From: Prorocentrum cordatum
Taxonomy: Eukaryota; Sar; Dinophyceae; Prorocentrales; Prorocentraceae
Length of the DNA: 64,000 nt
NCBI GenBank assembly: GCA_963575745.1
Contig: CAUYUJ010020579.1
Span: forward strand, 90,173-154,172
Direction: 5' to 3'
Below, one piece after another: positions 19,912-64,000 of this stretch. The position numbers were made by a program, and so were the translations under genes. Within the stretch, counting starts at the first letter, position 1. Each line of letters opens with the position of its first letter. The notes beneath the pieces were generated by a model that saw only the letters and a list, made by a program, of their open reading frames with translations, did no database searches and was not told the DNA's origin.

Positions 19912-19913
19912 GG

Positions 19914-19935
19914 TTTCAGCCCAAATGGCTACAGA
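19914..19935 (-). other. Relict dinoflagellate spliced leader abutting the transposase start
   Basis: The minus strand reads TCTGTAGCCATTTGGGCTGA then AA, two bases before the ATG at 19,911. The known leader is (D)CCGTAGCC-ATTTTGGCTC-AAG; I count 18 of 22 matches. Such relicts arise when trans-spliced mRNA is reverse transcribed and reinserted. Confidence 0.6.
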
Positions 19936-20046
19936 CTCGGTAACGATGCCAATGCGCATCATAGGATGCATGCGTCGCGTTATGGTAGGGGCACGCTGCA
20001 TGATGCATCTGAATGCAGCGAGGCGATAGATCACAACAGAAGTGCA

Positions 20047-20170
20047 CGTTGCATATCGATGCATATGGCATGATACGACGTCGCATCAGAAGGACATGTA
20101 GGTGCATATTGATGCATACGAAGTGCGACGGTAGCTCGCAAGAGAAAGGAGTGTTGCATATTGATGCATG
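20047..20170. repeat. Three spaced TTGCATATTGATGCAT elements
   Basis: Copies at about 20,047, 20,102 and 20,154 (spacings near 54 bp) each hold TGCATATYGATGCAT, containing the ATGCAT palindrome. They lie between the stop of the 20.4-21.7 kb gene and the start of transposase copy 1, both on the minus strand. A regulatory role is only a guess. Confidence 0.6.
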
Positions 20171-34867: not shown

Positions 34868-36597
34868 TCAGAGCGACCTAAGGTCGGCCAGCCTCTCCGT
34901 CGCGCACTTCTTGTGGGTCTCGCCGTCCTGCGTCGCCTCCCCGAGAGCCTTCGCGAGCTTGGCCATCTCGTCCTTGTCGCTGTCCTCCGTGCAGATATCG
35001 GCCCTCGCACAGAGCTCCTCGGCCTCGCCGATGAAGGTCTGCAAAACTTCTTCGACGTGCTTGATACCGTCAAGCTTTGCCGTCAGCGCCTCGCGATCCT
35101 CAGGAGGCGTATGTTTGGCTTTCGCCGCCGTGGTCACCTTCTGCTTGATGACCTGCTGAATCTTCGGGAGCAGGGCGTTGATGCATTTCCTCTTGGGCCC
35201 ACGCCGAACCCCTCTCCCCCGATCCCGCCGAGGCCCTGGCCCGATCCCCCCCTTCTGGTCCGCTGCTGTCCTCAGCGTCTTGGCGCTGTGGCGGCAGGCA
35301 GAGAGCTCGGTGGATTCAAGCTCGACCTCAATCTTCTCCTTCGCGGCGACGCCCAGCGACTGAAAGACCCCCCCGTCCGCCAGCGCTCTCACCTTGCTCT
35401 CGCACGGCTTTCCCGTGAGCATCTGGGACGTCCCCGACGTGATATCCCTGTCGGGCCATCGTCCCCTCCTCGTCGTCGTCGCCGCCGTCCTCCTCCCACT
35501 TGCCCTCCTGCTCCTCTCCCTCCACTTCCTCCTTCGCTCGCCTGTCCCTCCTCTACCTCCTCCTCCTCGTCCTCCTCTCCCCCCTCCCCTCCCAGCTCTC
35601 CTCCTTCCCCCGTCCCACCATTGTCCTCCTCGCCCCTCCCTTTCATTCCATCTCCATGTGTTCTGTCGAATCTCCTCCTCGTCCTCCTCGCCCTCCTCCT
35701 CCTCCTCCTCCTCCTCCGCCTTCCCCCGGCCTCCAGCCCCCTTCCCCCTCGTCCTCCCCCGCCCCCGTCCTCGCCCCCTGCGGGCGATGTGCGGTTTGCC
35801 GCGCCTGGTCTTCCCGTGGTCGACGATGAAGTAGTAGCGGCTCCGCACGGGGTCGGCGTGCTCCTGTCAGGCGCCCTCAACAGGGCCCCTTTGAAAGCGG
35901 ATGGGGGGAGGAGGCGGTCCTGCGGCGGGAAGTCAGTGGCCGTGCCGTATTGCTTCTGGTTGTCCTCGGCCTCGGCCACAGCGAAGGCGATGGCCGTTTT
36001 GACGTCGTCAAAGTCGCTGATCTGATACCCGACCTCCTTCAAGATCTGGCCAGGCGTGCGCCAATTGGCATTCGAGCCAACGGTCGTCTCGTCGCGCTTG
36101 CCGCGCGACTCCCTGAACTGGACCGTCCAGGCGAGGGACCCCTTCCAGGAAGATCCGTTCTTGCGCCACACATCAAGAAAGCTCTCCTGCTGCTCCCAAT
36201 CCATCTTCTTGTAGGAGTCGAGCGCGACCTGCGCCTCGGAGGCCCTCTCGCCGTCCTTGGCCTTCGCCACTTGCCTCAATCCAGTGAGCATCGTGTTGAT
36301 CTGCGCCTGGTCGCGAGCCCCTTTCGGAGCTTTCTTCGGGGGGGGCGAGCGCGCCTCCTCTTTCGTCGGCAGGGCACGCGCCTCCTGCGCTGCGGCTGTC
36401 GCCTCCGCTGCCGCCTCCTCTGTCGCCTCCGCTGTCGCCTCCGCTCGCGGCGCTGCGCCCTCGACCCCCACGGCCTCTGCGAGGCGCTCGCCGCCTCCCT
36501 CTCCCGCCCTCGCCTTCGACTTCGCCGCGGTCCGCCGCCCAGGCTCGGGGGGCGACTCTGGAGCGGCGGCGGCGGCAGGCCGCTTCCTGGGCGCCAT
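34868..36597 (-). CDS. Unknown dinoflagellate protein with basic front and helical tail
   Basis: ATG at 36,597 gives MAPRKRPAAAAAPESPPEPG; two upstream in-frame Mets exist at 36,648 and 36,720. Residues 1-130 are disordered and Ala/Glu-rich. About 150-225 holds YKKMDWEQQESFLDVWRKNG and LAWTVQFRESRGKRD. The frame breaks at 35,889-35,864, where a 26-nt copy of hairpin family E lies; skipping it gives SAFK then EHADPVRSRYYFIVDHGK. An intron at 35,777-35,448 (CGCAG|G to GACAG|G, phase 2) holds the TCC/GGA tract. The last exon encodes a long helical tail (LTAKLDGIKHVEEVLQTFIG) ending at 34,868. No enzyme motif seen. The MAPRKRPAAA front recalls the RRPAA-tail genes. Confidence 0.5.
35448..35777 (-). 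other. Intron with TCC/GGA tract
   Basis: On the minus strand the boundaries read CGCAG|GGGG and GACAG|GGATAT, with phase 2 at both sides. The 330-nt interior is almost wholly GGA/GAG on the sense strand. The donor GG is non-canonical, so the 5' edge may be off by a few bases. Confidence 0.45.
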
Positions 36598-47564: not shown

Positions 47565-47815
47565 AAAGAGAGAGAGAGAGAGAGTAAGAGAGAGACAGAG
47601 AGAGAGAGGTAATGATATGGAGCTGCACGATGCATACCTGCGTTTCAAGTTCACACGGCGTTCTTGCCTGAATTGCAAACGCATGGGGACCTGTTTTTCA
47701 ACGGTGGGCTGTTCGCAGCCCTGGAGCACTTTCTTTGGGGAAGGAGTGGGGAGAGCGAAAGAAAGTGAGTAAGCGAGAGAGAGGGAGAGAGAGAGAGAGG
47801 GAGAGCGTGCTTGGG
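47565..47815. repeat. GA microsatellite blocks
   Basis: GA runs at 47,567-47,612 and 47,765-47,812 on either side of a short unique segment. Confidence 0.9.
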
Positions 47816-48359
47816 ACGGGGGTGCCTTAGTCTAGCTGACGCGTCCTGTCTTTACCCATGGCGCGTCCTCCTTCCCCAGCCCTCATTCCCCTGGTGATTA
47901 TACTTCTCTTCGCCCCCCTCGCCCTGCGTCCTCTTGCACTCGTTGGAGTTTCCTCGCGGCCCCCTCGGGCCTTCTCGAGCCTACTCGCCAGGTGCACGCA
48001 AGAGGCCCATCGAAAGCTCTCAGAGTTCCCTGCGTGGGCTGCAGTCGAACTCAGAGTACGTAGCGTTGGCTCAGTTGGGACCTCTTCAGCCCCTCTCGTG
48101 GCTAGCTTGCGCTAGCTTGCTTTCGGGTTCGCAATGCGAGGCCTCGCTCAGGGGCCGCCTCAGTCCCGCCTGAGATCAGGCCAGCCCCGAAAGAGGCCTT
48201 AGAAGCCCGAAGCGAGCCCCCCCAATAGGGCTCCAAGCAGACCAGCTGGCATCACTATTTTGTTTCTGCGTTGCGTTGGGGCTCCCCTGGGGAGGAGGGT
48301 GGCGCGCCTGGATCTCGCCTGAAAGCCACCTGCGGTCGACTTGGAGCTCTCCGAGGGAA

Positions 48360-49197: not shown

Positions 49198-51960
49198 CCC
49201 AGGAGGCGTCGGACATCGATCGGGCGAAACGTGAAATCCGAGGCTGTCTGAATGGGTTTGCGTCCAGCGTGACGCCATACGGACCTCTGATCGATAAACT
49301 GGTTTTGGCAGCATCCCCTGGGCCAGATGTGGAAATGTATTACTGCAACCCTATGGCGTATTTGTGGAAGGCGTGTCAGGACAACACAGAATTTTCAGAC
49401 TATTTGCGCCGACACGTTCGAGGTCTCGCAGGGTCCCTGATTCTCTACCAAGACGAATGCACGCCCGGGAACCAACAGCGGCCAGACCATGGGCGCAGCG
49501 TCATGTGTCAGTACTTCACTCTTAAGGACACGAGAGCGAAATGTGCCCCTGGGCGCTTGGCCCGCCCGCCGCCCACTGCGTTAGGATCGAATGAACGAGC
49601 CAGCGGGCACGGCCCACCCCCACCGTAAAATCAGGCGCAGGAGCAGCAGCAACTGAATAAGAGGGCGAAGGCAGGGGCAGGCGAGAACAAGAAGGGGATG
49701 AGGAGGAGGGGGGGAGAAGGAGGAGAAGGAGGAGGGAAGGAGGACGAAGGAAGGAGGAGGAGGAGGAGGAGGAGGAGGAGGAGGAGGAGACGGAGGAGGA
49801 GGGGGAGAGGAGGATTTGTTAGTGCACAAGACGCAGATTGGCGGCGGGATCGAGGCTAATCGCCTGGTTCGGCACCTTTCTGCTCACACATAGGAGTTCC
49901 CACCAGACTTCAGGGCCCAGATCAACGGTTGGTTTGTCTTCAGCACGCTTGAAACAAAACATTTAGCACGCGTGGTTGGCGGGATGAGCGTCGTGACGGC
50001 TTCCACATTGAAGCGATTCTTCCCGCCAGAGGGCTTCTGTTTTGATCGAACTGGCATCATGTTGCCAGGTAGGGGTGGCGAGTTTCACTTTCGAATGCAG
50101 TTCAAAATCATCTGCCAGGACGAGAAAGCGATGAAGGCTGCTTTCGGGGCCATTGGATCAGCGGGGCTTAAGCCTTGCCTCCTGTGTAGAAATGTAGTCG
50201 CGGCCTGGGCTGGGATTGAAGATGAGTATTTCGTATCAGTCGGGGCTGCCAGAGCGAGGGATTTAGACTTACACGACCGAGCCTCGATAACGAAGCCTCT
50301 GGCCCAAATTCCGCCGACGACCCCCGATGGGCCCGCATGTCAGGACGTATACATCCACACGTGGTTGAGAGCACGCACGAAGATGCACAACCGCACTTCA
50401 ATCATGCATAATCATGCGCCGAAAAACGGGAAAGCTTTAGCAAGCTCGGCGCCTTGAAATGTGAGGCAGCGGTCGCAGGGCGTCCTAGATGCCGTAAAGC
50501 AATGTTACGAGCGCTACCCCCCCTTGCCGAATGGGAACATGCGCCAGAGATGTAAGGATGGCTTTAAACTACACGGTTTCAAGCACGTCCCTTATGGCCT
50601 TCTTCAGGATGCACATTGCAGGAAGATAGTAGAGCCGTCAGAGTGCGTCATGTTTGACAACATGCACAACATTCTGGCGTCGGGAGGCCTCGCGCAGTAT
50701 CAGGTAAATGGGTTCATTAACACAGTTTTGCGAGAGACGGCCATCACAACTGCCGATCTCGATGAGTTCATGTCGACAGTGGTTGTTCCCCGATCGTATT
50801 CGAAGCCCCCCGCATCATTTTTTTCCAGCCGCATCGTGCGCAACGAGACTTCACACTGTAAGGGGTTCGCAGGTGAGATGATCACAATTGTGTCAATGCT
50901 CGTGTTGTTTTGCGAAGTTGTTCTGGCTCCTCGGCGCATCCTGGACGATCACGTCGTGTGCATGTGCTTGTTGGGCCAGGTCGTTGATTGGTGCGTGATT
51001 GCCCACGAGTCGGTCTTGTTGCGGCACTGCCAGACGTTGACTGATATATTAGACAGGTACCTGGATATGTCCACGAAACTGTATCCCTCGATCGAAAGGC
51101 CGAAATTGCACTACTTACAACATACCCCTGGCACCGTGGCCAAGCACGGCATTAACCTCACGTGCTTCGCACCAGAGCGGCGCCACAAGGTAACGAAATC
51201 GGTCGTTGAGCATACATTTGCAGATCACAACACAGCCACGCACCCCATCAAGAAACTTGTGTTCTTGCACATCCAAGGGCTGATGGAGCCCAAGACGTTC
51301 ATGGGCACCTACCTGCACCGAGCTCGGAGCTTGGGGGACATTAGTAGCTGGACTTTGGGCTGGCAGAAAGCGCTCGTTCTGCTAGGGCCCAAGTGGCCTT
51401 CGAGGTTCTTGGGGACTCGGGGCCCGCGCGGGCCGATTCAGGAGACATGGCCGTTGCCAACCCAGGGGATGACGAAGGCCCCGGGGAGAGAAGAGTAGGA
51501 GGAGGAAAGGGAAGGCAGCGCAGAGCGCAGAGGATGGAGGCCAAGGGGGGGAGACGGAGGAGGAGGAGGAGGAGGAGAAGGAGAAGGAGAAAGACGAGGA
51601 GGAAGCACGCGCGTTTCCCCGAGGATCTCAGAACTGATGGGTCTTCACCGACACGAGATCAACATGTGGGCGTCGACCAGCATGAGAACGCCCCGAGGCA
51701 CGTTGCATCTCTCCGACTTGCTGTGGTTTGTGCAAGGGGGCCAGCTGATAGTAGCCAGGCCAGTAATGTTCATTGAAGTGAATTCAACATTCGCAGCGTT
51801 GGCAGATGTATTTGAGAAGGGCGGTGATTCCCTGTACCGCCCAAGCGGGAAGGGCCCAGCTTTCCTTCCAGTCTCGGAGCTGGGGGGCACCCTCGCTTTC
51901 GTGAGAATGCCAGGGCAATCGATTCGGCCCCTTTTTCCAAAATTGCCGATCGAGCTCTAA
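49198..51960 (+). CDS. DDE-transposase-like gene, copy 3, several exons
   Basis: Exon pieces: about 49,198-49,530 with SLILYQDECTPGNQQRPDHG; about 49,892-50,330 with AGLKPCLLCRNVVAAWAG, beginning at ATAG|GAGTTCCC; about 50,465-51,490 with CVMFDNMHNILASGGLAQYQ (the Asp-x-Met-His landmark) and NLTCFAPERRHK; and about 51,622-51,960 with LHLSDLLWFVQGGQLIVARP, homologous in pattern to the end of copy 1. Intervening stretches hold GGA tracts (49,680-49,810 and 51,490-51,610). No ATG is assigned; the 5' exon may lie before the foldback element at 49.0 kb. Exact junctions are unresolved except the acceptor at 49,891. Order and landmarks match copy 1 throughout. Confidence 0.55.
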
Positions 51961-52527
51961 GCTTGAGGCGCGCAGCAATGCGAGAAGGAGGAAGAGGATA
52001 ATACAAGAAGAAAGGCGGGGAGAACGAGGGAGGATGACGAGGAAGAGGAGGGAGAGGAGGAGGATGAGGATAAGGGGGAGGAAGAGGAAGAGGCCACATA
52101 TATGGAAACCGACGCGGATCGGTCCCGATTGCATAGTTTCTGATGGCATCGTTCAGTTGTCAACTAGGTGCGCTTGTCTGTCGCTGGCGATGTACAGTGC
52201 CACGTGGCATCGCTTGCCTGTTGCTGGTGGTGTACAGTTCTACTGCACTGTCAACTGTGCGAGTGCCAATCACGTCCACCTCCTCCTTCACCTCCTCCTC
52301 CAACTTCTCTGCCTCCTCCTCTTGATCCCCCTCTTCCTCCTCCTCCTCGTTCGCCGAAGGCGTCGGTAAAGCAGGCGCCCCGAAGTGCCCCTAAGAGCCC
52401 ACGCCGCCACAAAGCGGCCCTTATGAGTCCCCCAGCGAGGCTTCAAAATATTCCCGGGCAGCCCTCCTCGAGGACTCTGAAGACCCCAACCAGCAAACTG
52501 GGGGGGAACGTGATTGATGTCTGCATT

Positions 52528-52594
<67 letters not shown>

Positions 52595-53143
52595 AGAGAG
52601 AGAGGGAGAGCGAGGGACACAGGGAGAGGGATAGAGATTATGACCGAGAGAGAGAGTGAGAAACTAAAGGGGAAGCTTGTGTACTTGGAAGGATTCAAGA
52701 GGCCGCAAAGAAAGATAATGTTAGGAAGCGTATGAGGAAAACGATTGGGAGGGCGACAACCATGAAACCGTTCCTGGAGGCGCCCGAGAGGGTTCTAAAT
52801 GCTGTAAAGGGCCCGCCTGTGCATGCCCCAGGGGCCCTCCGACATTCGAGGCCGAGTGACCCCCCTCCCCCTCGCTTGACGAAGCCGAAGATGTCGAACG
52901 CGCTGGCACCTGCCCGGGTCCGAAAGCCCTGCCCTCACTGATCGCAACCGCTTGACATCTCCAACGCTGTCACAATGGCCGTCGTTCCCAAACAGTGCAT
53001 GCACGACAGGACTAGGGCTTGGATTGGCCTGCTGAAATTGTTTGAACAAACAGATGTCGGGCTTGGATTGGCCCCTCCGAAAAAGCTTCGCACGCGTTGC
53101 TGGTCTACAGACACTGTTTGGGGTGCACGATCTCATGACAAGA
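51961..53143. other. No recognised gene; GGA, TCC and GA tracts
   Basis: GGA tract at 51,985-52,095, TCC tract at 52,280-52,350, GA run at 52,529-52,605. Short open segments show no domain. The last part (52,975-53,143) is unique 5' flank of the gene at 53.2 kb. Confidence 0.6.
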
Positions 53144-53167
53144 TCAGTAGCCAAATTTTGGCTCCAG
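53144..53167 (+). other. Relict spliced leader with 2-bp insertion
   Basis: TCAGTAGCCAAATTTTGGCT then CCAG matches the leader apart from AA inserted after GCCA and a few changes. It shares GGCTCCAG with the relict at 46,732. The ATG at 53,231 follows 63 bp later. Confidence 0.65.
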
Positions 53168-53230
53168 CTGTTCAGCACCGTCAGCTTGCGCTCTCACGTC
53201 CGACTTGCATTTGCAGCTCACTGCACAATC

Positions 53231-54259
53231 ATGGCCGCTGCTGCAGCGCCCGTTGTGGAAGCAGTCTCGGCGGAGTCAGCTAGCGAGCAAGCGACTCCGA
53301 AAAAGTGCACCACCTGCCACTTGTGCATCCCTGACGGCGGAAAGTGCTCGGCGATCTTCAACCCAGGCGAGGGCAAGAGCAGCAAGGCGTATTGGCGTTG
53401 CCAGAAATGCGTCGCGCTCAAGGCCCGTCTCAGGCGCGCCATGGTCGTCGAGGACAGGTTGGACTTCAACAATCAGCCTGATGATGAAAAAAAAATGTTC
53501 TTCCAGAGGGCCGCTGAATTATACGGCCCCAACCTGAAGTTGTTCGTTACCCAGACGCTTGAGAAAATCAGGACTACGACGAAGTCAGCATCTTACGAGG
53601 GCGAGGCGTTCTGGCATACCGAGGACGAGCTCAATAAGAACTTCAAGCCGCATGTGGTGGCACACGTCAAAGCGAACGCCCGCAAACTCATGAACTCAAC
53701 TACAGGGGAAGTGGAGTGGGAGGTGTTCCGCTACAAGACGAAGACCGTGGACGCCACCGAGGACAAGGAGGTCTTGAAGCGCAAGGCCGAGGTGGAGGAG
53801 ACCAAGAAAGCGCCGAAAAAGGTGAAGCAGGAGCAGGCGAAGCCTTCGGATGATGGGGAGGCTAATCCTGACAAGGGCCTCTTCACCGAGAAGCAGCTGA
53901 AGCGGGTCCAGACGGCCTACGACAAGATCGTGGGTAAGGCTGATGAGTTGGACAAGCTATTCCAGGAGTGCTCGGACCCTTCGATGAGTGAGTACGTGCA
54001 GACCAGACACATGACGGCGGCTGAGAGAACCTTGGAGTCCCTCGCAGTTCTCCAGACGATGATGAAGACGGCGCTCGATACCAAGAAGGCTCCTCAGGCG
54101 GACTTCATGAAGAGCTTGGCGGGCGTCGTGAAGGCCGCTTTGGACTTGGTGACGACCTCGACGAAGAAGCTGACGTCCTTCAAGCAGGAGGCTGAGGATG
54201 ACCTAGAGGAAGGCGCTGAGGGCGAGGAAGGTGCTGCTGACCACGGTGATGTGGAGTAA
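53231..54259 (+). CDS. Intronless zinc-ribbon and coiled-coil protein
   Basis: ATG at 53,231 gives 342 residues with no intron. Residues 26-64 form a zinc-ribbon-like unit: KKCTTCHLC, then YWRCQKCVALKARLRR. The middle (80-160) contains RAAELYGPNLKLFVTQTLEK and VEWEVFRYKTKTVD. From 190 on it is a long Lys/Glu coiled coil (LFTEKQLKRVQTAYDKIVGK) ending in an acidic tail (EEGAADHGDVE). The WRCxxC-LxxR pattern recurs in the gene at 62.6 kb, and EWEVFRY recurs in the 31-33 kb gene. The relict leader at 53,144 and the absence of introns mark it as a retroposed cDNA. It may bind nucleic acid or protein; function unknown. Confidence 0.65.
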   Translation: MAAAAAPVVEAVSAESASEQATPKKCTTCHLCIPDGGKCSAIFNPGEGKSSKAYWRCQKCVALKARLRRAMVVEDRLDFNNQPDDEKKMFFQRAAELYGPNLKLFVTQTLEKIRTTTKSASYEGEAFWHTEDELNKNFKPHVVAHVKANARKLMNSTTGEVEWEVFRYKTKTVDATEDKEVLKRKAEVEETKKAPKKVKQEQAKPSDDGEANPDKGLFTEKQLKRVQTAYDKIVGKADELDKLFQECSDPSMSEYVQTRHMTAAERTLESLAVLQTMMKTALDTKKAPQADFMKSLAGVVKAALDLVTTSTKKLTSFKQEAEDDLEEGAEGEEGAADHGDVE

Positions 54260-54729
54260 CGTCCTGATCGCTACGTCCCTGCCGCGCGTGGGCATGAGCC
54301 CACAGGAGCCGACTCCGTGAGAGCTCTACAGGTGCTGTGACATGCTTGCCTTTTCAATGTGCATTGCCCTGAGGCCCAGCCTCGCGGCCTCATGTTCAGG
54401 CCCGGGCACAGAGGGCGATGGGCCGATACGCGAGGAGGCTAGCCCCTCGAAGCTCAAGTTTGTTCTTGCGAGCAAGTGATTTTGCCTCAAAGGCGTATGC
54501 CATGCGCGTCGTCACGTGACCTCCACTCCTCCTCTACTAGACTTCTTTCTCCTGCACACATGTATCGCCCTGTGTGTGTATGTTCTCTGCCTCCAATCTC
54601 TGCTGCCCTCGCGCTCTCCCTCCCCTTCCGACCACCATCCAGAATGTTCTGAGATACGGGATCGAGGGTCCAACTGATCACGTCGGCTGCGTCTGCCCAT
54701 GCACGTCTCAACTGTCACCCCCCCTGTTC

Positions 54730-54893
54730 CCGTGTACGCCCCGTGTACGCCCCGTGCACGCCCCGTGCACGCCCCGTGTACGCCCCGTGTACGCCCATGA
54801 CCCCCCGACGCACAGCGTACACGGGGCGTACACGGGGCGTACACGGGGCGTACACGGGGCGTACACGGGGCGTACACGGGGCGTACACGGGAC
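54730..54893. repeat. Large hairpin of inverted 11-bp arrays
   Basis: Six copies of CCCCGTGTACG (two with GCACG) run left to right, then a spacer of about 22 bp (ATGACCCCCCGACGCACAGC), then seven copies of the reverse complement (CGTACACGGGG). Arms of about 66-77 bp could form a cruciform. Confidence 0.95.
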
Positions 54894-54925
54894 GTCGTCC
54901 CTCCTCCTCAGCTGGTGCTTCTCCT

Positions 54926-55112
54926 CCTGACCCGCGAGGGTCCGACGCAATCGAGCAAGTCCTGACCCGCGAAGGTCCGACGCAATCTAGCAAGTCTTGA
55001 CCCGCGAGGGTCCGACGCAATCTAGCAAGTCCTGACCGTCCCCCTCCTCCTCCTTACGCAATCTTGCAAGTCCTGATCCGCGAGGCTCCGACGCAATCTA
55101 GCAAGTCCTGAC
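54926..55112. repeat. 35-bp tandem repeat
   Basis: TGACCCGCGAGGGTCCGACG followed by CAATCTAGCAAGTCC recurs at 54,928, 54,963 and 54,998, with diverged copies to 55,112. A TCC tract follows at 55,128-55,190. Confidence 0.9.
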
Positions 55113-55412
55113 CCTCCTCATCCTCCTTCTCGTCCTCCTCCTCCTCCTCCTCCTCCTCCTCCTCCTCCTCCTCTCCCTGACTCTGCTCACTGCTCAGCGT
55201 GCCCAGGGGATGGCGCGGCCCCCCCTGCCCGCCGATTCGATCGATGCGTTGGGAAACGTCGAGGTGCCTCCCCTGCCCTTCTCGGCAAGCGTGCCATGAC
55301 GATCGCTCCTGCCCCTCCCCGCAGCTTCGGGCTCAACGAGGCTAGCCCGTGAGCCCACAGCTGCAATCAGAGTTTGAAGATACAGATCTTTACTTACATT
55401 CTCGCCCCCACC

Positions 55413-58206
55413 ATGCCTGCCGCTCGATCGAAGGCTTCGGATGGGGGGGGGTGAGGAGGAAGGAAGCAGAGGAGGTCGAAGGAGCGACTTGCGAGGAGGA
55501 GGGGGGAAGGAAGGAGAGGAGGGGGAGGAGGAGGAGGAGGAGGAGGTAGGCAAAAGGACGATGAGGGAAAGGTGGGGTAGGAGGAGGAGGAGCAGAAGGA
55601 GGAGGAGGAGGAAAAGGAGGCCCCTGATCAGGCTGCAACACGTCGGAGTCAGACGGCTGTGGAGTCCTGGGGGAAACGATGCAAGGAACTGATCGCCCTT
55701 ACGCCGCAGGTCGATTTCAAGCATGGCCAGGACTTCGCTAACTGCTTCCAGCGCCCGCTTCGGATCTGCCTGCCCTGCGTTGGGGTCGACGGGTGCGGCG
55801 CTGCGTTCTCTCTCATGAACGTCTCTGTGGTCGGCCGCAATGTGATGGACATTGAGACGTCATATGACAAAATTTTGGAGGGCCATTTTGGTCCAGGCTC
55901 CCCCCCGGGCCCAAACGATCCCCCTCCCCTGCAGGCTCAGAAAGCTCACCCTCCCCAGGCTTCGAGAAAACGCCCCCGCAAGACAATCCATCCTCCGCCC
56001 ACAGAGGCGTCGCGTCGCTCGGGGAGGGCAGCGGCGACGTCACGCAGATTCAGCTCGAATCAGTCTATGGATGCGATGGGTTGGTGATAGTGCGAGAGCA
56101 AGGGTGGGCCACGAATGGTGCTTCGGGGTCGGCTGAGCGCTGGCGCGTTTGGCCAAGCGCTCAAGGCTAACCCCAACGCGCCATTCGTAACCACGCCCTT
56201 GCTCTCGCGCAAGGTGAGCGGTCCACCGTGCCCCCCCTGGTCGACCGTTGGCCTCAAGAAGGGTCGAGATGACCCCCGTTCTGACATATACTTTCAAGTG
56301 CTCACGATGGCAATCAAGCTCATCAAGGATCTATTTGGGCGGTTCCAAGCGATGCATCAACCCATCCCCAAACGTTGCGATCTTCCTTTTCCTTCTCGTC
56401 CTCCTTCCCTTCCTCCTCCTCCTTCTCCTCCTCCTCCTCCTCCTCCTCCTCCTGCTGATACTCATCCTCGACCTCCCATGCCACCCCCCCCTCCGTTTCC
56501 AACACCTCCCCTCCCACCTTACCTCGCTACTTGTTCCTGGGGGAGGGGGTGATGGCATGCCTCCTAAAGGATGGTGTCGCTCTGTTCACGCTGCTCGAGA
56601 ATGTGCCTGGCACGTTGGGAGCCCAATTGGCATCGGCTCGGTCGGTTCGCTTGGATCGCTCGGGGCCCCAATCGGGGCCCACGTCCTGGGTTGGCCCCGG
56701 GCTTGGTCAGCTTTGCCGTGGTTTGGTCTGGCCGCCTCGCCTGGTGTTTTGTCGGCCCTAGGCATTGCAGATCTCCTGGACTCGGTCCTGGGTGTCCTCC
56801 GCAAGGAGGTCAAGGAGTTCCAATGGGACGCCGTCAGCCTTGACTCGATTGATTACGGTTCGGCGCAGCAGAGGCGCCGCGTATGGCTCAGAGGCCTCCG
56901 CGCGGCCTCTGGGCCCATGCCTCCACCTCTCCAGCCGTTCGAGACACGCCCGCTGCAGGAAGCGGCCATTTCGTCGTCGCCACCCTCCCTGCACTCCTTC
57001 TTGTTCTCATCTTCCCCGTCGTCCCCCATTCCTCCCTTTCCTCCTCCTTCTCCTTCTCCTCCTCCTCCTCCTCGTCCTGCCCCTGCTCCTCCTCCTCCTC
57101 CTGCTCCACCTCTTCTCGTGTTCCTCCTCGGCCCTCTTCTCGCGCTGGTAGGATTTCCTGGCCCAGCTGCCCCCGGGTGACCTGGAGGCGCTCACGCCGA
57201 TGATGAGGAGAAGCTTAACGTATTACGAAAAGAGGGTGCGCCGCCTCCTGGCCCAGGGGCTCGTTTCGGAGTCGAGCATCTGCTGTTTCAACGTCGACCG
57301 CTCCCAGAACGGGGCTTGGGGGAAGGACATACTCGTCGATAGGTGCCCCACATTGACCACTAAGAACCGATACATCTGGGTACTCAAGGCTGGCGACGCA
57401 CGCCTCCCTTACGCGAACCGCCAGTACTGCAGGACCGATTCGAAACGCATGCCCCATCCCTGAACCAGTCTGGCCAACGAGCGAAGAACGAACAGAAGGA
57501 AGAAGAGCGAGGATGGAGAGAAGGAAATTGATAAGGGGAAGGAGGATGCGAATGAGACGGGGGAAGATAATGAGGAGGAGGAGGAGGAAATGGAGAAGAG
57601 GAAGGAGGATATGTACACCGCTTTTGAAATGGTGAGTAGCTCAGGTCAGTTACGTGCGTTCGTCTGGGCCCCGCTTTGGTTCCCAAGGTTGCTGACCCCT
57701 GTGGAGCGGTTTGGGCTACAAGGGCTACCCCTGAACAGTGTCAAGGATTTGCCGTCTGAGTCCCTGGCCCTGAAGGCGTCGGGAAATGCGTACCCCGCGC
57801 CGATGGTCATTGCAGCAGTCGCCCCGCTTTTAACTAAAGCTCGCGAGCTTCACGGTGATCCCAATGCTTCGCAGATCCGCCGCCCAATCATGGTTACTTG
57901 TATGTGCTACATTCAAATGCTTGAAACTTATAAAAGGTATGCCCGCTTGGGCGGCATGTTCCTGCTTGAGCTCATGTACCTGCCTGACGGTGGCAGGCGG
58001 ATTTGGCAGAGTCGTCTGTTCTTTTGCCGCCCGGGGACTGCGCTGCCTCTGTGTCGGAGGCCAAGCGCATCCGCGCCCTCTTCGAATCTGCAGGGAAATC
58101 CCCGGGCGGAGGCAAGCCGCTTTCACGCAGAGAGCAGCAGCAGCGTGCCAACGCTGAGGTCAAGAAAGCACGCAAGCTCATTTCCCAGTTCACTCGGCCA
58201 AGCTAG
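55413..58206 (+). CDS. C5 cytosine DNA methyltransferase, nine-exon model
   Basis: Model: 55413-55433, 55632-55896, 55935-56089, 56214-56327, 56570-56609, 56762-56958, 57152-57432, 57688-57854, 58010-58206. These join in phase to 478 codons. Motifs of the C5 family appear in order: I (VGVDGCGAAFSL, residue 57 on), III (GDVTQIQLESVYGCDGLVI, 129-147), IV (VSGPPCPPWSTVGL, catalytic Cys153), VI (LLENVPGI, 193-200), VIII (DYGSAQQRRRVW, 229-240), then RLLTPVERFGLQGLP (358) and LKASGNAYPAP (386, motif X). The enzyme would transfer methyl from S-adenosylmethionine to cytosine in DNA. At 478 residues it is little more than the catalytic domain, so a role near retroelements is possible. Weakest points are the first exon, the 38-nt gap at 55,897 and the last intron. 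Confidence 0.75.
55434..55631 (+). other. Intron 1 of the methyltransferase gene
   Basis: AAG|GCTTCG to TCAG|GCTGC, phase 0, GC donor. The interior is GGA/TCC-rich. The AG|GCT word is repeated at both ends. Confidence 0.5.
56090..56213 (+). mobile_element. Foldback intron (introner-like) in the methyltransferase gene
   Basis: A 124-nt GT-AG intron, phase 0: GTGATA|GTGCGAGAG to CGCAAG|GTGAGC. Its two halves are imperfect reverse complements along nearly the whole length: GCGAGAGCAAGGG pairs with CCCTTGCTCTCGC, then CACGAATGG with CCATTCGTAA, then GGGGT with ACCCC, then TGAGCGCT with AGCGCTCA. Removing it joins motif III to motif IV exactly (GLVI then VSGPPC). Confidence 0.85.
56328..56569 (+). 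other. Intron with GA donor and TCC tract
   Basis: ATCAAG|GATCTA to CTAAAG|GATGGT, phase 0; AAG|GAT occurs at both ends. Removing it gives IKLIK-DGVALFTLLENV. Confidence 0.7.
56610..56761 (+). other. Intron with GC donor
   Basis: GTGCCTG|GCACG to CCCTAG|GCATTG, phase 1. Removing it gives LLENVPG-IADLLDSV, which matches the usual ENVPG(I/L) form of motif VI. Confidence 0.7.
56959..57151 (+). other. Intron with GA donor and TCC tract
   Basis: CTGCAG|GAAGCG to GGTAG|GATTTC, phase 0. Removing it gives ETRPLQ-DFLAQLPPGD. Confidence 0.65.
57433..57687 (+). other. Intron with GA donor and GGA tract
   Basis: ACTGCAG|GACCG to CCCAAG|GTTGC, phase 2. Removing it gives NRQYC-RLLTPVERF. Confidence 0.6.
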
Positions 58207-59224
58207 GGTGACAGTGCCTTTTTTTCGCACACCGCATCGCATGATGATCCTTGGGAAGGTCGCGGCCAGAAGGGCACTGGCCTTGCAGATACCAGTTCGC
58301 AATTTGCGAATCATCGAAAGGGGTCGATGTGTATCTCGTATCTTTGCTGATCACTTTTGGGATGTACAGGAGTTCTGATGCGTGCGTCTAGTTGGAAAGA
58401 GAGCCACCTGATCACATAGCCTAGCGCGCAGTCGAAACCACACTTAGCAAGCTAAAGTACCACCAGAAAACCGTTTCGAGCAAGCATTGTTTGGTTGTCA
58501 GCGTGTGTTTATCATAGATCAATGCCGCTACAAGTGACAGGTGCTCTCCCGCTTTTTGTCTTGCTTCGCCGAAGGCTAGCCTCGCGAGGTATATGCAATC
58601 GAGATCATTTTTTGCCGCAAAACAAAAAGCCCATGCATGGACGGCAGGAGGAGGATGGGAGGAGAGGAGGAGCGGGAGGGAGAAGGGAAACACAGGAAGC
58701 AGAGAACGACTGGGAGGAGGACGACGAGGAGAGCGGAAGGAGAACGCAAATGCGTATAATGGAGGGACGGGAAGGCCCCCCATGGGAGCGGCCCCTAGTC
58801 ACTGTGCCGCGCTTGGTACCTTCTGCCTCGGCACCCCACCCAGGAGCCCCCAAGAAGGCCCAGCACCCAGCAAGGGACTTGCTTCTAAACCAAATTCCCT
58901 ACGGGGTTCGTTTCCAAAACATGTTGCGCACGAAACTAGAACAACTCAATGGGCCTCTCGAGACCCCCGACAAAGAACATGAATATCAGATGTGGTCCGT
59001 TTCAGACGGCTTGTGGGGCACTCTTGTCGGGCCCTTATCGTTGGGCCGCGTCTTGCTCCACTTCCTCCTGCCACCTTCCAAGTGATTATCCTCCTCCTCC
59101 TCCTCCTCCTCCTCTTCCTCCTTCTCCTACTCCTCCTCCTCCTCCCTTTTTTGGTAACATTCATGCTCGAACATCTCTTGGAGCGCCGACTGTCCATCGA
59201 GCTTGCACCTTCGAGGCTTTGGCC
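58207..59224 (+). other. Between genes; one possible unrecognised exon
   Basis: A plus-strand segment at about 58,760-59,085 is open and reads RDLLLNQIPYGVRFQNMLRT and LEQLNGPLETPDKEHEYQMW, protein-like but of no family I know. A GGA tract precedes it (58,645-58,740) and a TCC tract follows (59,093-59,150). It could be a 5' exon of the gene at 59.2 kb. Confidence 0.35.
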
Positions 59225-61199
59225 ATGGCAGTGCAAGCGGCGATTGCTGCTGCCAGCAGGTATCTGGCGGCGAGCGTGGCAAACGGGATGGCGGTTGGAT
59301 CGCAAGATTTCCAGGCGGCGGTTCAGCAGCAGCGCCTTCTCATCGACAGGGCGATTGCCACTCAAGGTGCCATTGACACCGCTGCCGCCGCAGACGCCTT
59401 GAACGACCTCGCGAACAGCCTCTTCCCGGACGCAGATCGCGCTGCGATCGCCAGGGCCGTCAACGCTGCACAGACGACAGGGGTGGCACCAGCGCATCGG
59501 CAACAACTCCAAACGTTCCTTCACATTCACCACTACCTCACGGAGGACGATTGGGCAGTGCTTCTCGACCCTGCAACAGCCATGGGCCGCAAGCTCGAGG
59601 TCATCATGCTCCGCATGCGGGCGCTCAACGTGATGTACCCATCGGAGCCGACGAAGGTGCACGTCGTCGCGTTGCTTGCCTTCGCCACAGGAGACGCCAG
59701 TGGGCCTGCGTCCATCGACCCCATGGCCACCCTGAGGGACGTGACGACGTCCGTGAGGTACTGGCGCGGAGTCACGCCCCCTCGGGCATTGCCATTCATC
59801 GTCACGTGGGGCCAGAACCCGAATGATCTTCGCATTGCTCACCCGCAGCTCTTCGAGGCCGCCTACGGTGAGAAGCACCCAGTGGCGTCGAAGGTGGACT
59901 CGGTCCAGCTCGGTCTTTTTCAGAGGACGTTGCCTGCCAGACAGAGCCACAGCGCGGTGGCCGCGGGGGCGAAGCGGGCTCGCGTTGCCCCCGCGGCATC
60001 CCAGCACGCTTTCCTTCAGGCTCGCATGGGGGGACGCGCGGGAGGAGGAGGAGGAGAAGGAGGAGGAAGAGGGGGAAGAGGAGGAGGAGGAGAAGGAGAA
60101 GGAAGAGGAGGAGGAGAAGGAGGAGGAGGAGGAGGTGCAGGAGGAAGAGGAGGAGGAGGAGGAGGAGGAGAAGGAGGAGGAGGAGGAGGAGGAGGAGGAG
60201 AAGGAGGAGGAGGAGGAGGAGGAGGAGGAGAAGGAGAAGGAGGATCCAACCCCCCGAAAGGTCCTTTCGGGGGTCGCGGGGATGGGGAAGCTCGGACAGC
60301 TTTGGAAACACAGTTTTCAGGAAAACCGTTTGGGCACGATAATGGAGGAGGAGGGTTGGGGCTACAGGAGGCAAGGGGTTGGGCCTCCCGAGGCGCTCGC
60401 TTCCAACTGGATGAACGCGATGCAGCATGGGCAGCAGCCTGGCATTCCTGGCTTGCAGATCTTCGCGCGCCCGCAGCAGGCGCCCGGGCTCCCCGACGTC
60501 GGCCAGTCCATGCTGCCAGTTGGCCGCGCTGGGTCGGGCGGGTTCGCGCTCATGGACGGGGCGGCCGCCGCGTCGCCATCGGCATCGCCGACGAGCGAGT
60601 CGTCGGGCAGCCCGGGCCTTCAGCTTGCACTGCCGTCCAACGCATGTTCGCCTGCAGAGGCGCCGCGCCCTGCAGCGAGTGCGTCTGCCGAGGACGTCGC
60701 CAGTCGGCTGCAGGCGAAGCTCGGCAAGGCGCGCGCAGCGAAGGCGGAGGACACGGGGGGCTCCGAGGAGACTGCCGACGAGGATGAGACCTCCAGTCAC
60801 CTGAGGAGGCCCGCTGCTGCGCCCGCTGCTAAACGTGTTTTGCGTCGGCCCGCTGCTGAGTCATCGCCTGTTTCTGCAGATGCCCGCGGCAAGGGCCGCG
60901 GGCAGGGGAAGGGCAGGGGCCGCGGCCAGGGGAAGGGCAAGGGCCGCGGCAGGGGCCGCGCCACGAGTCATGGCGCAGGCACGGCATCCAGCAGCAAGCA
61001 CCCCTACCCTGGCCCCCCCACCAAGAAAAAACCAGCCATGTGTATCGGCCAATTCGGCGTGTACACAGATCCGCGTACTTTTGCCTGGCGCGTTCTCAAG
61101 AGGGGCGAGCGCGTCGATCAGAGGTTCAATTGCAAGCGTTTCAACAATCCCGAAGAGACGTGGAGCCTGCTCGTCAAGCATTGCCTCAGCAACTCCTGA
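59225..61199 (+). CDS. RRPAA-tail family protein 2, two exons
   Basis: Exon 1 is 59,225-60,019 (265 codons, ATG at 59,225, MAVQAAIAAASRYLAAS). Exon 2 is 60,321-61,199 (293 codons with stop). The 301-nt intron reads CTTCAG|GCTCGC to TTTCAG|GAAAAC (GC donor) and holds a GGA tract and a 23-bp palindrome. Total 557 residues. The front is helical (IHHYLTEDDWAVLLDPATAM; PSEPTKVHVVALLAFATG) and similar in spacing to the front of protein 1. Then follow LRRPAAAPAAKRVLRRPAAE, a Gly/Lys/Arg run (GKGRGQGKGRGRGQGKGK) typical of RNA or DNA contact, and a tail domain with FGVYTDPRTFAWRVLKRGER and a final Trp helix. Function unknown. Confidence 0.7.
60020..60320 (+). other. Intron with GGA tract and palindrome
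   Basis: GC-AG intron, phase 0. GGA/GAA triplets fill 60,036-60,242. A perfect palindrome follows at 60,251-60,273: CCCCCGAAAGG, T, CCTTTCGGGGG. Confidence 0.65.
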
Positions 61200-62460
61200 T
61201 TTTGATTGCGAGGTGTCCAGCTGGTGCTCACAACAAATCATAACCTTGGCACGCACGGTACAGATTTGTGCGGTTGCCTCGTGTTGAGATCTCCGTTTCG
61301 CCGAGCTTTGACGGCTAGCCTCGGCGCGCGATGCGGAGGAGTCCCAGCTTAACCATCGCTCAGTTGCAGCATCAGCTTTTTGAACTCCTGGTTTGCCTAG
61401 AGCGCTACGTACGTTTGTTTGTTTGCGCTCTGTCAGAGCTGAAGGCTAGCCTCAGCTCGGACTGCGATGCGACAAAATGCATGCAGCCTCCTCCCCTCCG
61501 TCCCCCTCCACCTCCCTGTCCTCCATCTCCCGCTCGGTCACTTGCTCACTGAAAGACGTCACGTTGGAGAATGTTCGCGGCCGCGCGCCGACTTTCCCAC
61601 CTGGCCCTGGACTTGCCGTTGACCCAATGCTCTCGAACCCAAGAGGTTCCCCAGGAAATCCAGAGCTCTCGATGTCCAGCGTTCAAGTTTGAATTCCAGA
61701 GCTGTTCCAATAACTTCGGATGCGACTTCACAAACAACTGCCCGGACGGTGGCCAACATTGCAATGCAAGTTCTGTTTGGGAAGCTAGTTCGGTTAAACA
61801 CAGCGTGGACATGAACAATGACTGTCGGACTGCTAGATCAGAAGGGAAGGCAATGTGGCAAACGGAGTAGGCAAGTCTTCGTCATCATTATCCTCGTCAT
61901 CCCCCCCCCTCTTGGCGCTGCTGCACTATCGCATGTATCGCTCACCCTCTCCCAAGTCCTGGCGCTTCGCGTGTCTCCACCAGCCCATCAAGGAGCGACC
62001 CCCGAGGACGTGCTGTTATCGGGGGAGGGCGACATCATTTTGAGAACGCAGGGGCCCTGTTGAACGGGAGCCTTTGTGAGGCAGGTCCTCGGAGCCTCGT
62101 GGGAAGGTTAAAGCCTTTTAGAACCCTCTTGGGGCAGATCGGGGATTGGTTGGCGTCTTTTGGAATGCCATTGGGATCATTTGTGGGCGCAGGCTTGGTG
62201 CCATCTTGGAGGCCATCGAGGAATCAATTGCAGTGAATGCCCCCATCTAGCGTGAGCCCGATGAGTTGCAAGGCGCCGTTGCAAGGATGGCGCAAACCTC
62301 CCGAAAGGGGAAGAAGGCGGTAGGACAAATGAAGCGCTCGAGATGCCCCACCCCCCAAACAAGTTGTTAACGTAGCCTGTCTGTGTCAAGCCAGTTCCAG
62401 GCTGCGTTCATTCTCGAAGCCCAGTTTCAGGCTGCGTTCGTTCTCGCAGCCACCCATCTG
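61200..62460. other. No recognised gene
   Basis: Unique sequence with two family-G hairpins (about 61,299 and 61,436) and scattered short open frames without recognisable motifs. GCTCTCGAACCCAAGAGG-type words near 61,630 and CAGTTTCAGGCTGCGTTC (tandem pair near 62,394 and 62,425) are the only repeats seen. Confidence 0.5.
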
Positions 62461-62581
62461 GGGCCTGAGTTGATTGGGTCGGAGGTTCGCGCTGCGTCGA
62501 CGACGCATCGCCGCCCGATGCGGGGTTTGATTTTCTCGACGCCGACGCGGCGCGAACCTCTGACCCCGTCAACTCAGGCCC
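62461..62581. mobile_element. MITE-like foldback element, copy 2
   Basis: A 121-bp element with arms of about 39 bp: GGGCCTGAGTTGATTGGGTC and on, paired with the reverse complement at the right end at about 35 of 39 positions. Arms and interior are related to the element at 49,006-49,180. It ends 27 bp before the ATG at 62,609. Confidence 0.75.
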
Positions 62582-62608
62582 TCAGACCCCATCAACCCGG
62601 GCTCCGCG

Positions 62609-63139
62609 ATGGCTGTGTGCAGCCGCTGCGCCGACCCGTCCGAGACGAACTTGGTGCATGTGCGCGCAGCGGATCGCATGGCACGCAACCACGCAGGTGT
62701 ATGCATCTGGCGGTGCCGACCATGCGAGAGGCTCCGCATGCGATTGTATCGCCTGCGGACCTCCCGCCCGGAGGTGTTCGCTATGTATCGGCGGCTCGGG
62801 GCGGGGGGCAAGCAGCAGGTGTTCCAGCACGGCAAGCATATGTATGGCGATGGGTTAGTGCAGCTCATCGGGGACACATTGCAGATCCACCAGAATCCCG
62901 TGGCTGATGCGCCCCCCATGGTTGATGTGGCGATGCACTTGCCCGACTTGATGCTCCCAGATCTCATCCCCGAGCCTCCTGTTGATTGCATTTGGGTAAC
63001 GCCAGAAGAGGCCGCGAAGCTTTTTGGCGGTTTCATTCCCGAGGCCGTCGAGGCAACGCTGATAAGGAATCCCGTTTCACTGCAGAGTTTCGTTTGGATC
63101 GATCGCGTTCGCCCCGCTGTAGAGCTCGAGCAGGCGTAA
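62609..63139 (+). CDS. Zinc-ribbon-like small protein, 176 aa
   Basis: ATG at 62,609, stop at 63,137-63,139, no introns seen. An N-terminal zinc-ribbon-like unit has Cys4/Cys7 (VCSRC) and a second cluster CIWRCRPCERLRMRLYRL at about 32-49, the same WRCxxC-LxxR pattern as the gene at 53.2 kb. The middle (60-95) has YRRLGAGGKQQVFQHGKHMY, and the rest is Pro/Leu/Ile-rich (PDLMLPDLIPEPPVDCIWVT). A foldback element lies directly upstream. Probably a stand-alone member of a dinoflagellate zinc-ribbon family; it may be truncated at the C-terminus, since a TCC tract (63,195-63,355), often intronic here, follows. Confidence 0.55.
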   Translation: MAVCSRCADPSETNLVHVRAADRMARNHAGVCIWRCRPCERLRMRLYRLRTSRPEVFAMYRRLGAGGKQQVFQHGKHMYGDGLVQLIGDTLQIHQNPVADAPPMVDVAMHLPDLMLPDLIPEPPVDCIWVTPEEAAKLFGGFIPEAVEATLIRNPVSLQSFVWIDRVRPAVELEQA

Positions 63140-63194
63140 ATTTCGAGCGCAGGCTTCACTGAGCCATGCGCATAGCGTAGCAATCCTTCCAACT

Positions 63195-63355
63195 CCTCAG
63201 CCCCTCCTTCCCATCCTCCTCCGCATCTTCCTCCTCCTCCTCCTCCACCTCCTCCTCCTCCTCCCTACTCTTCCTACTACTGCTACTACTACGACTCCTC
63301 TCCCTTCTCTCCCTCCTCATCTTTCCCCTCCTCCATTTCCTCCTCCCCCCCCTCG
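63195..63355. repeat. TCC polypyrimidine tract
   Basis: TCC/TCT-rich tract with a TACTAC block near 63,270. Confidence 0.9.
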
Positions 63356-63790
63356 CCATGAGTTTTGCTTGAAATGCTACCGCAACGCTCTGCTGGCCCC
63401 ATCACGCCCCTCACGCGGCGCGCATGTACAGTCTGGCGCTTGCCGAGAAAAAAACAGAAAACGTGCTGCTCCCTTTCCTGTCCGCGGCCCGCCCCGCCCC
63501 TCCGAATCGGCGTCGATGAGGGTCGTCGGGGCTCGGCTTGCCTTGCCTGCCCTGTTCAGGGGGTGAGGGGAGGAGAGAAGGGTGGAGGGAAAGAGAGCTG
63601 AAGGGGGGAGGGTGGGAAAAGAGAATGGACGAAGAAGGCAAACCGCGGCAGCAGCGCAAGTGTCTGGTGAGCGCTCCCGTCTTTCAATATAGCTCCCAAG
63701 AGGGCCACAAGAGAGCCCATGATGGTTCCAACATGCATTCAAGCTGGCCCAAAATGCCTCCAAGACGGTCGCCGACGCAGAACGCCCAAA
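63356..63790. other. No recognised gene
   Basis: Mixed unique sequence and a GGGA-rich part (63,555-63,640). CCAAGAGGGCC-type words at 63,698-63,765 recall the repeats at 8.2 and 12.7 kb. Confidence 0.5.
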
Positions 63791-63791
63791 A

Positions 63792-64000
63792 CAGTTAGAA
63801 ACAGTTAGGAATAGTTAGAAACAGTTAGAAATAGTTAGAAACAGTTAGAAATAGTTAGAAGCAGTTATAAAACAGTTACACAACAGGCCACTTAACCTTC
63901 GACATACAACATCAGGTTGTGGCAGTTCTACAAGTCAGATTATATGCGGGTGAAGTGTAAGTCCTTAAGTGGACAGCAACTCATGTTATATGCTGTATAA
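63792..64000. repeat. AGTTAGAAAY decamer array and AT-rich boundary
   Basis: About nine copies of a 10-bp unit (AGTTAGAAAC or AGTTAGAAAT) at 63,792-63,880, then AT-rich unique sequence to the end. The same words occur near 45,565-45,590, beside satellite S3. Confidence 0.85.

What the first reader, a model, noticed from the sequence alone, without database searches (positions are those of the whole stretch)
56090..56213. An intron that is one near-complete foldback, between catalytic motifs III and IV
The intron's two halves are reverse complements almost end to end, with the arms starting at the splice sites. Its removal joins GDVT...GLVI to VSGPPC in phase, so it is a real intron by protein logic. 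Terminal inverted repeats at splice sites are the signature of introners derived from non-autonomous DNA transposons, known from several protists. This copy is well enough preserved to look recent.
Basis: partly seen in the sequence, partly recalled or inferred. Interest (0 to 1): 0.85.

Follow-up and report, generated by a model that had tools for sequence, protein, structure and literature searches.

The report
Foldback transposon turned intron, no family
A short hairpin-shaped mobile DNA element inserted into a DNA-methylase gene of a probable dinoflagellate and apparently became an intron, a kind of event already known from such algae, but no sister copies were found elsewhere in the genome.

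Summary
The foldback is real (RNA fold -91.5 kcal/mol, z -9.6, 0 of 200 shuffles as good) and splits a C5-methyltransferase gene just before its GPPC motif. The genome (4.13 Gb, 21,875 contigs) fits Prorocentrum cordatum. Two corrections. First, 5-bp direct repeats (GGTGA, 56083-56087 and 56213-56217) flank a 125-bp element. The better donor lies in the left repeat (intron 56084-56213): it gives CDGLVSGPPC, as read in 7 of 17 paralogue loci without this intron. Second, the proposed mobile family was not found. All 13 places matched, the window's own included, are this one site in copies of a larger repeated unit. Nor is it recent: copies 86% identical share it. Insertion is supported by the direct repeats, the inverted repeats, and 114 of 127 paralogue matches running unbroken across the site, including one locus that seems to keep other introns. 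It works like a dinoflagellate introner and meets their structural definition, but not the many-copies criterion. Splicing is inferred; no RNA was examined.

The parts
56083..56087 (+). left copy of the 5-bp direct repeat GGTGA (target-site duplication); supplies the likely 5' splice site G|GTGA
   Evidence: sequence; conserved in L068
56088..56212 (+). inserted foldback element, 125 bp, too short to encode a transposase
   Evidence: bounded by the direct repeats; fold
56092..56104 (+). left arm of the perfect inverted repeat (GCGAGAGCAAGGG); pairing extends outward to 56090
56196..56208 (+). right arm of the inverted repeat (CCCTTGCTCTCGC)
56213..56217 (+). right copy of the direct repeat GGTGA; its first G completes the acceptor AG|GTGA
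   Evidence: sequence
56084..56213 (+). most likely intron (130 nt, phase 0, GTGATA...GCAAG); splice inferred, not observed
   Evidence: homologue spacing and paralogues without the intron
56018..56083 (+). upstream coding exon (LGEGSGDVTQIQLESVYGCDGL)
   Evidence: weak tblastn matches with P0010 (E 0.28) and P0004 (E 0.35); alignment with L068/L069; alignment A1
56214..56336 (+). downstream coding exon with motif GPPCPPW (VSGPPCPPWSTVGLKKGRDDPRSDIYFQVLTMAIKLIKDLF)
   Evidence: tblastn; Pfam PF00145 on the typed joined peptide, E 1.2e-19
55752..55892 (+). methyltransferase exon A (approximate ends)
   Evidence: tblastn
56549..56617 (+). methyltransferase exon D (approximate ends)
   Evidence: weak tblastn matches with P0002 (E 0.29) and P0004 (E 0.60)
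56776..56961 (+). methyltransferase exon E (approximate ends)
   Evidence: tblastn
57155..57433 (+). methyltransferase exon F (approximate ends)
   Evidence: tblastn
57680..57862 (+). methyltransferase exon G (approximate ends)
   Evidence: tblastn
50000..63400 (.). minimum extent of the repeated unit that carries the gene and its intron in the close copies (true ends not found)
   Evidence: 51-61 kb aligned; 63.0-63.4 kb found full-length at all ten close copies; 50.0-50.4 kb at nine of the ten, the tenth (C17053) lying near its contig end, and at 83-84% near the three diverged copies

Best explanation
A 125-bp non-autonomous foldback DNA element (MITE-like) inserted into an exon of a C5-methyltransferase gene and duplicated 5 bp of target, GGTGA. 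The left duplicate supplies the 5' splice site (G|GTGA). The element's right end plus the first G of the right duplicate supply AG|G. Removing 56084-56213 takes out the element plus one duplicate and restores the pre-insertion coding sequence (CDGL|VSGPPC). The foldback may also bring the two splice sites together; this is inferred. After the insertion the intron multiplied only passively, as part of a larger unit that was copied whole. Shown here: foldback, direct repeats, frame, absence from most paralogue matches scored, presence at one site in 13 copies. Inferred: transposase-mediated insertion, actual splicing, the aid of the hairpin.
For: Foldback z -9.63, 0 of 200 shuffles as good. GGTGA on both sides in the window and in L068, 86% identical. 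Exact D/H/E-x4-GPPC spacing with donor 56084, as in the 19 homologues aligned and in 17 of 17 paralogue loci read, 7 of which read CDGLVSGPPC; some of these loci are near-duplicates of each other. 114 of 127 paralogue matches run in one piece across the junction; 100 of these start at residue 12 or earlier, and 14 start at residues 13-15 and so have only 3-5 residues left of the junction; many are copies of one another, not independent cases. The nearest paralogues outside the 13, L102 and L104 (57%), have gaps of 366, 591 and 637 nt (L102) and 346, 591 and 670 nt (L104) between exons A/B, D/E and E/F but none here, so their lack of this intron is not explained by wholesale retroposition; their splice sites were not worked out. 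Codon differences against L068 lean to third positions (32, 33, 69), so the gene was under some constraint while it already carried the element.
Against: No dispersed sister elements were found, whereas transposons normally leave families. A 5-bp repeat is short. No RNA evidence. Constraint is weak: synonymous against nonsynonymous codons are 61:58 versus L068, 61:50 versus L069 and 55:55 versus L070, and the 97%-identical copy L071 shows 2:16, as a decaying gene would. In L070 the upstream exon end and donor are deleted.
Confidence: 0.8

Rival explanations
1. The element is a transposon insertion that is not spliced: it simply breaks a methyltransferase gene that is decaying, and the in-phase splice signals are luck.
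For: No transcript evidence. Relaxed codon pattern in L071 (2 synonymous, 16 nonsynonymous codons) and a 5' deletion in L070.
Against: Splice signals sit exactly where removal restores the residues of paralogues without the intron. The exons of the window and L068 lineages, both with the element, differ mostly at third positions. The gene has other apparent introns.
Confidence: 0.1
2. Ordinary old intron, lost from the paralogues by retroposition or deletion; the foldback arose inside it later.
For: In Symbiodinium more than 90% of methyltransferase genes are intronless, and the expanded intronless families lie in retrotransposons (PMC5890265, passages read), so loss is a real possibility for many paralogues.
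Against: L102/L104 appear to keep other introns but lack this one. Direct repeats lie exactly at the element ends. The foldback fills the whole intron.
Confidence: 0.05
3. The palindrome was made on the spot by a replication or repair error (template switching) rather than by transposition, and was then used as an intron.
For: No sister copies found in the assembly. One 14-nt exact match to the end of the element, GTGCGAGAGCAAGG, lies on the minus strand at window 35392-35405 (E 0.085), though 20 kb away.
Against: Apart from that 14-nt match and the element's own other arm, blastn finds nothing in the window better than E 0.3. The 5-bp flanking duplication is typical of DNA transposons (recalled).
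Confidence: 0.05

Closest known systems
Introner elements of dinoflagellates (reported in P. cordatum PMC10666404, Amoebophrya PMC7789003, Symbiodinium microadriaticum PMC9860276)
   Same: Inverted repeats of 8-20 nt near both intron ends, direct repeats of 3-5 nt at the exon borders, predicted hairpin. S. microadriaticum introners are described as carrying their 3' splice site and taking the 5' one from the duplication, as proposed here (passages read).
   Different: Gozashti et al. (PMC9860276) treat introners as elements that put copies of themselves into many genes; here no copy was found outside one repeated gene. The duplication here is 5 bp, against 4 bp in the S. microadriaticum family.
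MITEs (non-autonomous TIR DNA transposons)
   Same: Terminal inverted repeats, flanking duplication, 125 bp, too short to encode a transposase.
   Different: No sister copies found; a cognate transposase was not looked for.
Methyltransferase-bearing retrotransposons of Symbiodinium (PMC5890265, passages read)
   Same: The host gene is one of many C5-methyltransferase copies in the genome (127 matches from 150 scored of 490 candidates).
   Different: This copy has several apparent introns. Nine window ORFs scanned against Pfam gave no reverse transcriptase, but only three of the nine lie within the proven extent of the unit, so the unit is not cleared of one.

Membership tests
Dinoflagellate introner element (structural definition quoted in PMC10666404 after Farhat et al.) | inverted repeats of 8-20 nt within 30 bases of each intron end | tested here: met
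   13-nt perfect pair 56092-56104 / 56196-56208, 8 and 5 nt from the ends of intron 56084-56213
Dinoflagellate introner element (structural definition quoted in PMC10666404 after Farhat et al.) | direct repeats of 3-5 nt within 30 bases of each intron end | tested here: met
   GGTGA 56083-56087 and 56213-56217
Dinoflagellate introner element (structural definition quoted in PMC10666404 after Farhat et al.) | it is a spliced intron | not testable with these tools
   protein logic only; no RNA data
Introner family (sense of PMC9860276) | similar copies as introns at many different sites in the genome | tested here: not met
   13 of 13 places, the window's own included, are one site in copies of one unit; very diverged relatives could be missed
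Introner family (sense of PMC9860276) | intron gain at a site empty in relatives | tested here: met
   114 of 127 paralogue matches uninterrupted; CDGLVSGPPC in 7 of 17 loci read; orthologues in other species not read at DNA level
MITE | terminal inverted repeats and target-site duplication, no room for a transposase gene | tested here: met
MITE | multiple dispersed copies | tested here: not met
MITE | cognate autonomous transposase with matching ends | not tested
   no search made

The most novel reading that the evidence does not exclude
An orphan introner: a foldback that became an intron in a single insertion without ever forming a family, and that has since spread only as a passenger of a repeated unit of about 16 kb carrying a methyltransferase gene. 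If real, intron birth would not need a bursting transposon family, and a mobile or tandem host unit would do the copying.
Probability: 0.12. Interest if true: 0.55.

Novelty: new member of a known kind. Interest (0 to 1): 0.35.

Why it matters
It is a clean single case of intron gain by a foldback insertion. Element, duplicated target, empty sites in paralogues and restored reading frame can all be read in one genome. It also warns that a high copy number of an introner can come from copying of the host gene, so counting near-identical introns does not by itself show mobility. The class of event is already reported for this group of algae.

Tried and rejected
Search for sister elements: whole element (23 matches, of which 10 are the opposite-strand self-match of the same copies, leaving 13 places), half element at E up to 10 (13 places), exact paired arms (9 places, each on both strands). 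All are the same-site copies. A looser arm pattern allowed 3 mismatches and a gap of 65-95. It gave 129 forward and 127 reverse matches against 48 and 36 for the reversed control; only part was listed. By my own mistake that gap range excludes the focal element itself (gap 97). Most listed rows are one other repeat (GGGCGAGCGCAAGGGCGC...). Three listed rows have 2 mismatches, with interiors that look unrelated by eye; no listed row has fewer. The corrected pattern (gap 90-120) did not complete, so an excess of loosely related ends is not excluded.

A 15-base arm pattern in IMG/VR gave 59 stretches; not studied further, as I judged that a pattern this short matches by chance. Covariance-model search of 21 held sources found the known copies and one weak match at window 47776-47897 (21 bits, E 0.01), besides three at E 1.5 to 5.4; its fold is ordinary (z -0.94) and I rejected it as a purine-rich stretch. 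Covariation in the hairpin: 1 pair of 43 changed on both sides, and 74 of 500 shuffles reached the observed covariation score, so no evidence that the hairpin itself is under selection. Of the window's 49 pairs, 43 remain pairable in L068. Rfam: 0 matches in 54500-64000. The first version of my introner scan dropped the focal element because I required four letters in the arm; I relaxed this, and also admitted GA donors and wider low-complexity filters, so that rank was obtained after seeing the target. Pfam found nothing above cut-off in the nine window ORFs scanned; one had a sub-threshold RYYR-CCHC match (14.8 bits, cut-off 27).

Full report
What was checked. The window is G000:C19730:90173-154172 of an assembly of 4,128,499,153 bases in 21,875 contigs; its G+C is 59.6%. 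Published figures for Prorocentrum cordatum CCMP1329 are 4.15 Gbp, 22,724 scaffolds and 59.7% G+C (PMC10666404, passages read). I infer that species or a very close one; no call confirmed it (a test with a named P. cordatum protein did not complete).

The foldback. The stretch pairs with itself almost end to end: 49 pairs in 135 nt, -91.5 kcal/mol, z -9.63, 0 of 200 dinucleotide shuffles as good. It is the third most extreme of 1421 windows by excess over 12 simple shuffles each. The first two are the inverted tandem array near 54.7 kb and another foldback near 62.5 kb, so strong foldbacks as such are not unique here. What stands out in this window is the combination with splice signals and a direct repeat: 16 candidates met the scan's rules, and the focal one has the longest arm, 13 nt, against at most 11 in 40 local shuffles (the rules were changed once, see Tried and rejected).

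The boundaries. GGTGA stands at 56083-56087 and again at 56213-56217, exactly outside a 125-bp element whose ends are imperfect inverted repeats. Nineteen homologues aligned have four residues between the D/H/E position and GPPC, with no insertion. Seventeen of seventeen paralogue loci read in the same genome show the same spacing, and seven of them read CDGLVSGPPC. Donor 56084 gives exactly that; donor 56090 gives CDGLVIVSGPPC. I therefore place the intron at 56084-56213, phase 0. It takes its 5' splice site from the left duplicate, as described for Symbiodinium microadriaticum introners in PMC9860276 (passages read).

Gain, not loss. A 62-residue peptide across the junction gave 127 matches in the genome, from 150 scored of 490 candidates. 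Thirteen start at residue 17, just at the junction; these are the intron-bearing copies, the window's own included. The other 114 run through it. Fourteen of the 114 have only three to five residues upstream of the junction, so 100 are firm; many of them are copies of one another. Because methyltransferase genes in Symbiodinium are mostly intronless and the expanded families lie in retrotransposons (PMC5890265, passages read), absence alone could mean loss by retroposition. But L102 and L104, among the nearest paralogues (57%), have gaps of 366, 591 and 637 nt (L102) and 346, 591 and 670 nt (L104) between other exons and none here. With the flanking duplication, insertion is the better reading.

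No family. The whole element matches 13 places. Ten, the window's own included, are 99-100% identical, two are 86% and one is 81%. In the eight loci compared, one of them the window's own place, 60 bases on either side are identical. Over up to 10 kb the nine other close copies align with the window at about 97-99.9% identity in their main blocks, and the three diverged ones at about 71-87%. The half element and the exact paired arms found nothing else. The unit reaches at least 63.4 kb in all ten close copies and at least back to 50.0 kb in nine of the ten; the tenth, on C17053, lies near its contig end. Sequence 83-84% like 50.0-50.4 kb also lies on the three contigs with diverged copies, at the expected distance on C18922 and C13915 but some 10 kb further off on C11736, and one partial match (71%) lies on C2869, where no methyltransferase match was seen. 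The three diverged contigs are not among the matches listed for 63.0-63.4 kb, where only 40 of 2374 candidates were scored. In contig C1858 two copies lie 16.4-16.5 kb apart. So the known copies of this intron come from copying of the unit. The genome search has limits that it states itself: it scores only candidates of a first look. The weakest match found was 81% identical; I infer that much more diverged relatives may be missed. A looser, corrected pattern search was asked repeatedly and never answered.

Age and constraint. The window and L068 introns are 86% identical by BLAST and 89% in a gapped alignment; the nearer exon stretches are 85-93% and the later ones about 84%. The insertion therefore predates that split and is not recent. 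Coding differences against L068 are 32, 33 and 69 at codon positions 1, 2 and 3, with 61 synonymous and 58 nonsynonymous codons; against L069 29, 27, 68 with 61 and 50; against L070 30, 31, 64 with 55 and 55: some constraint, not strong. The 97% copy L071 shows 2 synonymous and 16 nonsynonymous codons, as if decaying. L070 has lost the upstream exon end with the donor.

Verdict. The event is a foldback insertion that supplies an intron, which is what dinoflagellate introners do, and P. cordatum introns are already reported as enriched in such elements. It meets their structural definition. It does not meet the family criterion as far as it could be tested. Literature seen: passages of PMC10666404, PMC9860276, PMC7789003, PMC5890265 and PMC11453091; listings. 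Roy et al. 2023 (Curr Biol) is known to me only through reference lists and the review PMC11453091. Motif names of methyltransferases are recalled.

Noticed in passing
window 50000-63400 and G000 contigs: A unit of at least 13 kb carrying the methyltransferase gene exists in ten near-identical copies, with three diverged relatives; two copies in contig C1858 lie 16.4-16.5 kb apart. Its ends and mode of copying are unknown.
   Followed up: partly
window 62461-62595: Another very strong foldback (-94.1 kcal/mol for the 135-nt window, arms of about 33 nt, imperfect) next to the start of an ORF at 62609; not tested as an intron or element.
   Followed up: no
window 54721-54900: Strongest foldback of the window: tandem copies of a GTACACGGGGC-type unit facing their own reverse complement.
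   Followed up: no
window 35392-35405 (-): A 14-nt exact match to the outer end of the element (GTGCGAGAGCAAGG; E 0.085), within a gene-like ORF; chance or a remnant, not decided.
   Followed up: no
G000: 127 matches (from 150 scored of 490 first-look candidates) to a 62-residue methyltransferase peptide: the genome appears to hold a very large C5-methyltransferase family.
   Followed up: no
window 18100-20061 (-) and 49972-50454 (+): Two gene-like ORFs share a 61-residue stretch at 38% identity; neither has a Pfam match, and the first has no match in solved structures. The second lies in or at the edge of the repeated unit. ORFs 53042-54256 and 62609-63136 also share a weak match (24% over 93, E 1.8e-4).
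   Followed up: partly
L071 versus window, exons A-G: The 97%-identical copy shows 16 nonsynonymous against 2 synonymous codon differences, 13 of 19 changes at second codon positions; an odd pattern not explained here.
   Followed up: no
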